Source of the DNA: Oasisia sp. SBJ-2009
Taxonomy: Eukaryota; Annelida; Polychaeta; Sabellida; Siboglinidae
Direction: 5' to 3'
DNA length: 64,000 bases
Assembly: GCA_964017155.1 (NCBI GenBank)
Contig: OZ024854.1
Span: 52,494,096-52,558,095, forward strand
In this document: positions 60,601-62,624 of the stretch, piece by piece
Position numbering within the stretch: position 1 is the first letter of the stretch
Layout of the letters: every line of letters starts with the position of its first letter
Program-made: the position numbers and the translations under genes
Notes under the pieces: generated by a model
The model's database searches: none
What the model saw: the letters and a program-made list of their open reading frames with translations, nothing else
Told to the model about the DNA's origin: nothing

Positions 60601-62624
60601 CCTCCTACAAGTGACATGTCACATGGATGGTTGACCCTCCTACAAGTGACGTGTCACATGGATGGTTGACCCTCCTACAAGTGACGTGTCACATGGATGG
60701 TTGACCCACGGCAACTAAGGCACCTATATTGATATGAGACGTGTCGTATTCCTCTACCTGAGTGAAGTACGTCCGGGACACGTTGGACCCAAGAAGTTTC
60801 GCCTCAACAGTTTTCTGCACACTTTCTATGATCGCCTCTTCATGGAGGAAGTGAACCTCGTGTTTGGTGGGATGCACATTGACGTCAACATTCTGAGGGG
60901 TGATCTCAAGACTGAAACAGCCAGACAACATTCTGAGGGGTGATCTCAAGACTGAAACATAACCAGACAACATTCTGAGGGGTGATCTCAAGACTGAAAC
61001 ATAACCAGACAACATTCTGAGGGGTGATCTCAAGACTGAACCACAGCCAGACAACATTCTGAGGGGTGATCTCAAGACTGAACCACAGCCAGACAGCATT
61101 CTGAGGGGTGATCTCAAGACTGAAACACAACCAGACAACATTCTGAGGGGTGACCTCAAGACTGAAACACAGCCAGACACAATTCTGAGGGGTGATCTCA
61201 AGACTGAAACACAACCAAACAACATTCTGAGGGGTGGTCTCAAGACTGAAACACAACCAGACAACATTCTGAGGGGTGGTCTCAAGACTGAAACATAACC
61301 AGACATTCTGAGGGGTGATTTCAAGACTGAAACAGCCAGACAATATTCTGAGGGGTGATCACAAAACTAAAATATGTAGATAACATTCTGAGGGGTGATC
61401 TCAAGACTGAAACACAGATAACATTCTGAGGTAGCCAGATAAATATCTTGTGAGGTGATTTCAAAACTGAAATAGCCAAACAACATTCAGAGGGGTGATT
61501 TCAAGAAAGAAATGTATCAAAAAACACTATCCTGAGAAGTGATCTCATGACGGACAATCTTTGTTGGCAACGTTCATGACGTGTGTGGTGGTTTTATGCA
61601 AATGTGCACCCACTCATGCACCACAAGCACCACACACCGACATATGCACCTCAAGCACCACACCCCCATACATGCACCACAAGCACCACACCCCCACACA
61701 TGCACCACAAGCACCACACACCCACTCATGCACCACAAGCACCACACCCCCACACATGCACCACAAGCACCACACACCCACACATGCACCACAAGCACCA
61801 CACATCCACACATGCACCTCAAGCACCACACACCCACACATGCACCACAAGCACCACATACCGACATATGCACCTCAAGCACCACACATCCACACATGCA
61901 CCACAAGCACCACACACCCATACATGCACCACAAGCACCACACACCCACACATGCACCACAAGCACCACACACCCACTCATGCACCACAAGCACCACACC
62001 CCCACACATGCACCACAAGCACCACACATCCACACATGCACCTCAAGCACCACACACCCACACATGCACCACAAGCACCACACACCCACTCATGCACCAC
62101 AAGCACCACACACCCACACATGCACCACAAGCACCACACACCCACACGTGCACCACAAGCACCACACACCCACCACAAGCACCACACACCCACATGTGCA
62201 CCACACACCCACACATGCACCACAAGCACCACACACCCACACATACACCACAAGCACCACACACCCACACGTGCACCACACACCCACACATGCACCACAA
62301 GCACCACACACAGACTCATGCACCACAAGCACCACACACCCACACAAGCACCACACACCCAGTACCTGTTTATTCAATGACCTCTCTGCAAAACTGGTAC
62401 TGGACTTCCTCATTACTATTTGATGAGTAAGTTAGGTCCACAGAGAGCTCTATGTAAATCAGTCGCTGGAGGCTCAGGCAGTTTCTTATTTACTCTGTCG
62501 GAAGAAAAACTTGTAGATCATAATACCAACCTGAGGTAGATAAAAGGATGAGCATTTTTGGGTAGGTAGGCCGCATACACTGCATCAATGGCTTTCTTCA
62601 GTGTTGAAGACTCAACAAGGCGAT
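33503..62624 (-). CDS. MLH1: DNA mismatch repair protein MLH1, exons 10-19 (5' part outside window)
   Basis: Ten exons join in phase to 423 residues plus TAG. MLH1 pairs with PMS2/PMS1/MLH3-type partners in nuclear MutL complexes that act after MutS mismatch recognition. The first two exons encode the end of the N-terminal ATPase/transducer region (RLVESSTLKKAIDAVYAAYL; LEITPQNVDVNVHPTKHEVH). A short linker with MVRTDSRAQKLDGFL follows, then the C-terminal dimerisation domain (TFVGCVSPEHALIQHATKLY; MLALDSAESGWTE; LPMYILRLATE; VNWDSEKECFE) and the terminus DLYKVFERC. In yeast and human the last FERC residues contribute to the partner's endonuclease site. Exon lengths of 94, 154, 109, 64 and 165 bp equal my recollection of human exons 10, 11, 14, 15 and 16. 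The linker exon is shorter (179 versus 371 bp). Every intron except 16, 18 and parts of 12 and 13 is dominated by tandem arrays. No exon equivalent to human exon 9 is seen up to 64000. Confidence 0.97.
33870..35712. repeat. 34/36 bp minisatellite in MLH1 intron 18, about 52 copies
   Basis: The unit gacatacaccagtcatcact followed by agagactgctgcca or gccaca varies by 2 bp. It ends about 45 bp past the exon 18 donor. Confidence 0.97.
35760..35879 (-). CDS. MLH1: MLH1 exon 18
   Basis: The acceptor is ctttag and the donor gtgagt. The 40 codons read VNWDSEKECFETFSRETADF then YAVKKDWIPPSSPVGDGHSE. The VNWD-EKECFE start is diagnostic. Confidence 0.95.
35955..36872. repeat. 37 bp minisatellite in MLH1 intron 17, about 25 copies
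   Basis: The unit tagggaatgacacagttaca followed by cagagcaaagctccacc has gagcaaag/gaataaag and gacacag/gattcag/gatag variants. Confidence 0.97.
37374..37469 (-). CDS. MLH1: MLH1 exon 17
   Basis: The acceptor is gttgtag and the donor gtaggg. The 32 codons read EGELCTLPLLCESYIPPLET then ALPMYILRLATE. This is one codon longer than the human exon as I recall it (93 bp), because of an extra residue in the PPLE-(T/A)-LP segment. Confidence 0.95.
37863..38027 (-). CDS. MLH1: MLH1 exon 16
   Basis: The acceptor is ttacag and the donor gtacaa. The 55 codons read EPASIYELTMLALDSAESGW onward to REYFSVEISP, matching the C-terminal dimerisation domain. Confidence 0.96.
38036..38346. repeat. 14 bp minisatellite beside the MLH1 exon 16 acceptor
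   Basis: Units of gtcagtgacaggtg and variants start about 9 bp upstream of the acceptor, so they replace most of the normal 3' intron region. Confidence 0.93.
38411..38482. repeat. (GAGT)n/(GAGC)n tetranucleotide tract
   Basis: The tract is gagt repeats, then gagc repeats, then gagt again, in MLH1 intron 15. Confidence 0.95.
38553..38718. repeat. 16 bp-type minisatellite ggacctcacagaccca
   Basis: About ten imperfect units lie in MLH1 intron 15. Confidence 0.88.
39110..39193. repeat. (CA)n(TA)n compound microsatellite
   Basis: A CA run of about 20 bp passes into a TA run of about 62 bp near the MLH1 exon 15 donor. Confidence 0.95.
39284..39347 (-). CDS. MLH1: MLH1 exon 15
   Basis: The acceptor is gtttcag and the donor gtgagt. 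The 64 bp read (S)KELFSQLLIFNFGNFGMLR then LS. A 31 bp tandem array starts about 8 bp upstream of the acceptor. Confidence 0.96.
39355..42232. repeat. 31 bp minisatellite at the MLH1 exon 15 acceptor, about 93 copies
   Basis: The unit is caaacagaagcagtcactca followed by gtcagtatcaa. It starts directly at the exon 15 polypyrimidine tract and fills nearly all of intron 14. Variants (cagaagc/cagaagt/cataagt/gagaagt) are distributed in patches. Confidence 0.98.
42638..42746 (-). CDS. MLH1: MLH1 exon 14
   Basis: The acceptor is tttaag and the donor gtatgt. The 109 bp read LREIFENHTFVGCVSPEHAL then IQHATKLYLVNTTKL, matching the LREML.NHSFVGCVNPQWAL region at the start of the C-terminal domain. Confidence 0.96.
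42760..44030. other. MLH1 intron 13, non-array part
   Basis: AT-rich intron sequence with a short tandem of ttgttaaatc (three copies near 43709-43740) and a nearby short inverted repeat (ccacctgcca / tctctaggtgg). No gene is seen. Confidence 0.6.
44036..46600. repeat. 46 bp minisatellite in MLH1 intron 13, about 56 copies
   Basis: The unit is agtaagtaggggccgactct followed by gttggtgagtgttttgttgtgtctgt. It ends about 80 bp before the exon 13 donor. The left part is enriched in the gggact variant and the right part in ggggcc. Confidence 0.98.
46682..46803 (-). CDS. MLH1: MLH1 exon 13
   Basis: The acceptor is gtttcag and the donor gtatat. The 122 bp read GKKRRHTETTDDPAAMATKR then TIRLKSVLDIRHNIEQQTHT. 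GKKRRHTE corresponds to the basic PRKRHRED segment of human MLH1 (nuclear-localisation-like), and LKSVLDI to LTSVLSL. Confidence 0.93.
46850..48015. other. MLH1 intron 12, non-repeat part
   Basis: Intronic sequence without a recognisable exon. The segment 47380-47700 is less AT-rich and has short open frames but no protein match that I recognise. Confidence 0.5.
48018..48185. repeat. TA-rich microsatellite tract
   Basis: Long TA runs with interspersed tacata and tgta interruptions, about 50 bp from the MLH1 exon 12 donor. Confidence 0.96.
48235..48413 (-). CDS. MLH1: MLH1 exon 12 (linker)
   Basis: The exon begins ANKVSDSHMVRTDSRAQKLD and ends SSQETS plus two bases; the donor is gttcgg. The acceptor is the second AG of tagag, chosen because it alone keeps phase with exon 11. 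The 179 bp compare with 371 bp in human, so the disordered linker is shortened by about 64 residues in this exon. Confidence 0.88.
48481..48844. repeat. Compound tetranucleotide (TCCA)n-(CCCA)n-(GCCA)n
   Basis: Three blocks that differ by one base of the unit follow in order: TCCA to about 48570, CCCA to about 48627, GCCA to 48844 with one C insertion near 48803. The period of 4 leaves all frames open on both strands, giving Ser-Ile-His-Pro, Thr-His-Pro-Pro, Ser-Gln-Pro-Ala and Gly-Trp-Leu-Ala patterns that are not proteins. Confidence 0.98.
48930..50165. repeat. 13 bp minisatellite, about 95 copies
   Basis: The unit cactgcctcaaca has cgctgcc, atactgcc and gacactgcc variants. It lies in MLH1 intron 11. 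Confidence 0.97.
50462..51786. repeat. 40 bp minisatellite, about 33 copies
   Basis: The unit is acagttggctccaggtaaca followed by gggcctacaacaagaacact, with gacaaca/gtaaca and aggac/agaac variants and almost no length change. It lies in MLH1 intron 11. Confidence 0.98.
52135..57277. repeat. 49 bp minisatellite, about 105 copies, with higher-order repeats
   Basis: The unit is acatacagccacacaactgg followed by acagtggtcactacaagaggacagaacta. A rare variant (agcaacataactgg) recurs at 53479, 54641, 55278 and 55768; the last two gaps are 13 and 10 units. Patches of gagccacacaactagac variants dominate 56400-57170. Confidence 0.98.
57757..58030. repeat. (TG)n microsatellite with decayed flank
   Basis: TG runs interrupted by gcacg to about 57920, then degenerate TG-rich DNA. 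Confidence 0.96.
58062..58117. repeat. (TA)n microsatellite
   Basis: This is a pure TA run of about 56 bp. Confidence 0.96.
58490..60706. repeat. 35 bp minisatellite with an internal 12 bp palindrome, about 62 copies
   Basis: The unit is gtgacatgtcacatggatgg followed by ttgaccctcctacaa. Each unit carries the perfect palindrome gtgacatgtcac (a few read gtgacgtgtcac). The array ends about 50 bp past the MLH1 exon 11 donor. Confidence 0.98.
60758..60911 (-). CDS. MLH1: MLH1 exon 11
   Basis: The acceptor is gtttcag and the donor gtagag; the exon is 154 bp. It reads (S)LEITPQNVDVNVHPTKHEV followed by HFLHEEAIIESVQKTVEAKL and LGSNVSRTYFTQ. The DVNVHPTKxEV motif is the MutL family signature in the transducer domain. 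The acceptor is the innermost member of a tandem array of copies of itself. Confidence 0.97.
60886..61550. repeat. 42 bp tandem array made from the MLH1 exon 11 3' splice site
   Basis: The unit is acattctgaggggtgatctc followed by aagactgaaacataaccagaca. In the minus direction each unit carries tttcag and then the first 26 bases of exon 11 (coding LEITPQNV). About 15 copies are visible. Similarity to the native site is highest near the exon and decays after about 61400. The unit next to the exon is 40 bp. Confidence 0.96.
61608..62364. repeat. 28 bp minisatellite in MLH1 intron 10, about 27 copies
   Basis: The unit caccacaagcaccacacacc followed by cacacatg has shortened copies between 62155 and 62350. 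Long Cys/Val/Trp- or His/Thr/Pro-rich frames here are artefacts. Confidence 0.97.
62531..62624 (-). CDS. MLH1: MLH1 exon 10
   Basis: The acceptor is cgtag and the donor gttggt. The 94 bp read RLVESSTLKKAIDAVYAAYL then PKNAHPFIYL, with split codons at both ends. This is the transducer part of the ATPase half. Confidence 0.95.

What the first reader, a model, noticed from the sequence alone, without database searches (positions are those of the whole stretch)
60758..61430. MLH1 exon 11 acceptor amplified into about 15 decoy splice sites, with a built-in frame trap
The array unit is the native 3' splice site plus the first 26 exon bases. In most units, 42 bp (14 codons) keep the frame open, so splicing from exon 10 to a decoy would read repeated SLEITPQNVVWLCF. 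The unit next to the exon is 40 bp. Any decoy therefore reads through it as ...NVVWLFQS and then TGA, a stop 5 bases into the real exon. Only the innermost acceptor gives full-length MLH1. Mis-splicing would yield truncated, probably decayed mRNA of a DNA-repair gene, and copy-number change could tune the rate.
Basis: partly seen in the sequence, partly recalled or inferred. Interest (0 to 1): 0.75.

Follow-up and report, generated by a model that had tools for sequence, protein, structure and literature searches.

The report
Repeated splice acceptors in tubeworm MLH1
In a tubeworm-like genome, the splice site at the start of two neighbouring exons of the DNA-repair gene MLH1 has been copied in tandem many times, a known oddity called a mirage that was described in lancelets; the supposed reading-frame trap looks like chance.

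Summary
On the minus strand, the acceptor and first 26 bases of MLH1 exon 11 (native AG at 60912) recur as 13 decoy acceptors up to 61467; 10 of 13 would read into a TGA at exon bases 4-6, three stop earlier.

The structure is of a known kind: a 'mirage', a minisatellite spanning an intron/exon boundary, reported in lancelet genes (PMC3087553, PMC3902484). The gene is vestimentiferan-like (best hit Lamellibrachia satsuma).

New here: a second mirage at the next exon (50463-51783, 32 decoys). Minisatellites overlap or come within 10 nt of the acceptor in 4 of 8 array-bearing introns, of the donor in 0 of 8. A Ridgeia piscesae protein model contains the array as peptide.

In that model the innermost unit is 13 codons and in frame, so the 40-bp 'frame trap' is not shared. 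Random unit lengths give such a stop 72% of the time, and 40 bp also occurs at the outer end, so it is probably ancestral. Decoy use could not be tested; the lancelet reports say mirages splice normally.

The parts
60758..60911 (-). MLH1 exon 11 (154 bp); bases 1-26 are the exon part of the repeat unit
   Evidence: Pfam DNA_mis_repair 7e-13
60886..61416 (-). mirage array 1: 39-42-bp units, each with acceptor + exon start; decoy AGs end at 60952, 60994, 61036, 61078, 61120, 61162, 61204, 61246, 61288, 61327, 61367, 61407
61417..61532 (-). degenerate outer copies of array 1, with one more decoy AG at 61467 and a copy without AG at 61485-61510
60906..60908 (-). TGA met by 10 of 13 decoy reading frames (exon 11 bases 4-6)
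62531..62624 (-). MLH1 exon 10 (94 bp), donor CAG|GTTGGT, phase 2
61607..62355 (-). other minisatellite of intron 10 (28 bp); its consensus has no acceptor-like AG on the gene strand
50430..50484 (-). next MLH1 exon (called 12a here, 55 bp, ALLPGANLTPSNSDTKSK)
50463..51783 (-). mirage array 2: 40-bp units with TTCTTGTTGTAG|GCCCTGTTACCTGGAGCCAACT; 32 decoys in register (26 TTGTAG, 6 TTGTAAG), each leading to a stop before the exon
39351..42234 (-). 31-bp minisatellite that includes the polypyrimidine tract of the exon-15 acceptor and ends 3 bases before the intron end; consensus and the copies printed have GTTGA or like where the native site has CAG
38036..38348 (-). 14-bp minisatellite ending 8 bases before the intron end at the exon-16 acceptor
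33503..62624 (-). MLH1 exons 10 to 19 (11 exons in this model); 20,854 of 29,122 bases in tandem arrays

Best explanation
This is a mirage: a minisatellite that began as a tandem duplication of about 40 bp spanning the intron 10/exon 11 junction and then grew and homogenised by unequal exchange or slippage. The real exon is the innermost copy, held by selection on the protein. The other copies are intron, and most keep acceptor-like AGs because they are recent copies. Correct splicing most likely depends on exon definition, since only the innermost acceptor starts the normal exon; that step is inferred. Decoy use is probably rare noise that yields frameshifted mRNA. The 40-bp innermost unit is a leftover of the ancestral unit, not an adaptation.
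For: Unit equals 14-16 intron bases plus exon bases 1-26. 40-bp units sit at both ends with 42-bp ones between, and the outer end is the most diverged; for lancelet mirages cluster boundaries are said to escape homogenisation (PMC3087553, passages). A second mirage at the next exon. Array edges overlap or lie within 10 nt of the acceptor in 4 of 8 array-bearing introns against 0.20 expected, Monte Carlo P about 1e-5; donors 0 of 8. Units of the same sequence appear in a Ridgeia piscesae protein model, with lengths 30, 39, 42, 30, 39 nt, which argues against an assembly error. The L. satsuma model has a clean exon 10-11 junction. Lancelet mirages are reported not to disturb splicing (PMC3087553; PMC3902484; passages).
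Against: No RNA data. Site strength alone cannot pick the native acceptor: by a weight matrix recalled from memory, 8 AGs in intron 10 and 31 in intron 11 score at least as high as the native site. No YTNAY motif lies 15-60 nt before the native exon-11 or exon-12a acceptor; the same holds for exons 14, 17 and 19, 5 of 11 in all, so the motif says little, but how the right site is chosen stays open. The Ridgeia model itself joins exon 10 to a decoy, and that genome's annotation used RNA-seq among other evidence. In human segmental duplications, variable tandem repeats at exon-intron boundaries are reported to alter splicing, many with transcripts that retain the repeat (PMC2812944, passages), and IFI6 repeat units serve as donors, so such copies can be used. 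The 10-nt cut-off was chosen after seeing the data; P is 1e-5 to 0.017 for cut-offs of 0 to 100 nt, donors reach 2 of 8 at 50 nt and 3 of 8 at 100 nt, and counting both sides together P is 3e-4.
Confidence: 0.82

Rival explanations
1. The array is a functional decoy bank with a frame trap: decoy splicing makes unproductive MLH1 mRNA, and copy number sets the dose of the repair protein.
For: All 13 decoys of array 1 and all 32 in-register decoys of array 2 lead to early stops; 9 of 13 decoys of array 1 score within 0.7 bits of the native site or above it.
Against: Stops are the usual outcome by chance (72%); the Ridgeia innermost unit is in frame; array 2 meets its stops inside its 40-bp units, by another route, so there is no shared design; lancelet mirages are reported to splice normally.
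Confidence: 0.06
2. Decoys are really used in some tubeworms, giving an MLH1 isoform with an in-frame insert, as the Ridgeia model shows.
For: NP493_254g01023 reads exon 10, five array units and native exon 11 without a break. In human genes, boundary repeats retained in transcripts are reported (PMC2812944, passages).
Against: The model is a 164-aa fragment; by eye its first 15 residues and its last six (ESQPSV) do not match L. satsuma MLH1, and exact motifs from them are absent from the window's minus strand (exon 9 lies outside the window), so it looks like a failed gene prediction. The insert would sit just before the conserved SLEITPQNVDVNVHP core.
Confidence: 0.08
3. The array is an assembly artefact.
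For: Long arrays are hard to assemble; no reads were available.
Against: The same kind of units in a Ridgeia record; units carry their own substitutions and lengths.
Confidence: 0.03

Closest known systems
Mirages of lancelets (Branchiostoma Adh3, TnC, globins BflGb6 and BflGb9; similar repeats in PGBD5)
   Same: Tandem repeats spanning an intron/exon boundary, many units with AG or GT, uneven homogenisation along the array.
   Different: Here in an annelid-like MLH1 gene, at acceptors of two neighbouring exons, with 13 and 32 decoys; BflGb6 has 3 or 6 units of 150-160 bp, Adh3 units are 10-72 bp.
[quoted passage not shown] 1995; title in a reference list and a citing passage seen; paper not held)
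   Same: Minisatellite units carry splice sites.
   Different: Donors, and repeat units are reported as used there; here acceptors, use unknown.
Variable internal tandem repeats of human genes in segmental duplications (PMC2812944, passages)
   Same: Minisatellites at exon-intron boundaries change splice-site choice or make new introns.
   Different: About 4 units of 30 bp on average, half of them in coding sequence; here 13 and 32 acceptor copies in introns.

Membership tests
mirage (boundary-spanning minisatellite) | tandem repeat unit spans an intron/exon boundary | tested here: met
   array 1: 14-16 intron + 26 exon bases; array 2: 18 intron + 22 exon bases
mirage (boundary-spanning minisatellite) | many units keep AG or GT signals | tested here: met
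   array 1: 13 copies with AG, at least one outer copy without; array 2: of 32, 26 TTGTAG and 6 TTGTAAG
mirage (boundary-spanning minisatellite) | copy number differs between haplotypes or individuals | not testable with these tools
   only a difference from the Ridgeia model was seen
mirage (boundary-spanning minisatellite) | mRNA is spliced normally despite the copies | not testable with these tools
   no RNA data; the L. satsuma model has a clean junction, but whether that species has the array is unknown
IFI6-type minisatellite with used splice sites | array units serve as splice sites in real transcripts | not testable with these tools
   only the Ridgeia gene model

The most novel reading that the evidence does not exclude
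In vestimentiferan tubeworms minisatellites are seeded preferentially at 3' splice sites, genome-wide. In MLH1 this loads a mismatch-repair gene with dozens of decoy acceptors, so that array growth could lower MLH1 and in turn loosen repeat stability, a feedback loop.
Probability: 0.08. Interest if true: 0.75.

Novelty: new member of a known kind. Interest (0 to 1): 0.42.

Why it matters
It carries a structure described in lancelets to an annelid-like genome, with a second case in the same gene and a shared case in Ridgeia. That makes two open questions testable: why tandem duplication seems to favour acceptors here, and how the spliceosome picks one of dozens of near-identical acceptors. It also warns that such arrays can spoil gene models, as probably happened in the Ridgeia annotation.

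Tried and rejected
Frame trap as adaptation: rejected on the simulation, the 40-bp units at the outer end and the in-frame Ridgeia unit.

All MLH1 minisatellites as old mirages: consensus units of 8 of 12 arrays (the two mirages among the 8) score higher as acceptors on the gene strand than on the other strand; too weak to claim. AGs at or above native strength are more numerous on the sense strand in introns 10, 11, 12a and 18, equal in 12b, 14, 15 and 16, fewer in 13 (115 against 174) and 17.

Relatives by DNA: exact patterns found nothing in viral contigs or genome contigs, collections of viruses and of bacteria and archaea; the tool adds that records of the window's own genome may be left out. 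The genome search on the window's own assembly did not complete seven times, so species identity rests on protein similarity. Paper searches for earlier reports. Passages on repeats at intron/exon boundaries were read in PMC3087553, PMC3902484, PMC4526556 and PMC2812944; other listed papers were not opened, save PMC9921365 and PMC8789280 (term look-ups). The held main text of the Riftia genome paper (PMC8789280) has none of the words minisatellite, satellite, tandem repeat, mismatch repair or MLH1. The original IFI6 paper is not held.

Full report
What is there. The minus strand of the window carries MLH1 from exon 10 to the stop codon (33503-62624). An 11-exon model is open throughout and ends ...LPDLYKVFERC*. 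Exons 10 and 11 measure 94 and 154 bp. The closest protein found is Lamellibrachia satsuma Mlh1: 73% over the joined query (best 120 of 511 listed), 91% and 98% as aligned for exons 10 and 11. By eye, exon 10 of the Ridgeia piscesae model differs by one residue and exon 11 by none. The window is therefore from a vestimentiferan tubeworm or close kin (inference); the species is not known.

The array. The unit is exon bases 1-26 plus 14-16 intron bases, mostly ending in TTTCAG. It recurs 12 times as full units of 39-42 bp, and less clearly further out; 13 decoys have an AG. With a weight matrix recalled from memory the native site scores 5.5 and the 13 decoys 2.57 to 5.65: 4 of 13 score above it, 9 of 13 within 0.7 of it or above, and 4 of 13 lower at 2.57-4.0. 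All 13 give a stop: 10 at the TGA of exon bases 4-6, three inside the array.

Is the frame trap special? Random units with the same exon part give a stop from the innermost decoy in 72% of 3000 trials, and from all ten decoys in 60% or 72%, depending on whether the innermost unit may differ in length. Units of 40 bp lie at both ends of the array and 42-bp ones in the middle, so 40 bp is most simply the ancestral length. In the Ridgeia model the units read 30, 39, 42, 30, 39 nt and the last leads in frame into SLEITPQNVDVNVHP. The trap is thus neither unlikely by chance nor shared with that relative, as far as one gene model can show.

A second mirage. Array 50463-51783, beside the next exon, has the unit TTCTTGTTGTAG|GCCCTGTTACCTGGAGCCAACT. 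It holds 32 decoys in a strict 40-bp register, 26 with TTGTAG and 6 with TTGTAAG. The weakened form occurs in 6 of the 12 decoys nearest the exon and in 0 of the 20 further out; among the innermost seven it alternates with the other form, so these are probably not independent events. All 32 lead to a stop before the exon.

Acceptor bias. Of 10 introns in the window, 8 hold minisatellites by the rule. The array overlaps or comes within 10 nt of the acceptor end in 4 of 8 (introns 10, 11, 14, 15) and of the donor end in 0 of 8; 0.20 acceptor contacts are expected if arrays are dropped at random in the intron (P about 1e-5). With looser cut-offs the bias shrinks: at 50 nt acceptors 4 and donors 2 (P 0.009 for acceptors), at 100 nt 5 and 3 (P 0.017). 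Tandem arrays make up 20,854 of 29,122 bases of the MLH1 part and 6,478 of the 33,502 bases to its left. One gene is too little to speak for the genome.

How it probably works. Shown: the copies, their site strength on paper, the consequences for the frame, and the relation to the Ridgeia model. Inferred: tandem duplication of the boundary, growth by unequal exchange, choice of the innermost site by exon definition, and rare mis-splicing removed by decay. Two lancelet papers report that mirages in Adh, TnC and globin genes do not seem to disturb splicing (PMC3087553 passages; PMC3902484 passage). Against this, human boundary repeats are reported to change splicing (PMC2812944 passages; IFI6 in a passage of PMC4526556). 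The Ridgeia gene model does use a decoy, but it is a 164-aa fragment with ends that look foreign to MLH1, so I read it as an annotation error caused by the array; its genome paper names homology, ab initio and RNA-seq evidence together (passages), so real use is not excluded.

Verdict. It is a new member of a known kind, in a new phylum as far as the searches named under Tried and rejected show.

Noticed in passing
50463-51783: A second, larger mirage at the next MLH1 exon with 32 decoy acceptors; 6 of the 12 nearest the exon have TTGTAAG in place of TTGTAG, none of the outer 20.
   Followed up: yes
39351-42234: A 31-bp minisatellite copies the polypyrimidine tract of the exon-15 acceptor, but its consensus lacks the AG.
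   Followed up: partly
35957-36866: The 37-bp consensus unit contains TAACTGTGTCATTCCCTAG|GT, which looks like an acceptor followed by GT, about 25 copies.
   Followed up: no
33503-62624: 72% of this part of MLH1 is tandem repeats, against 19% of window bases 1-33502.
   Followed up: partly
16980-18476 (+): Open frame with a reverse transcriptase domain (RVT_1, 1.3e-29), probably a LINE-like element.
   Followed up: no
12953-13204 (-): A frame with a SAP domain (2.3e-11), probably an exon of another gene.
   Followed up: no
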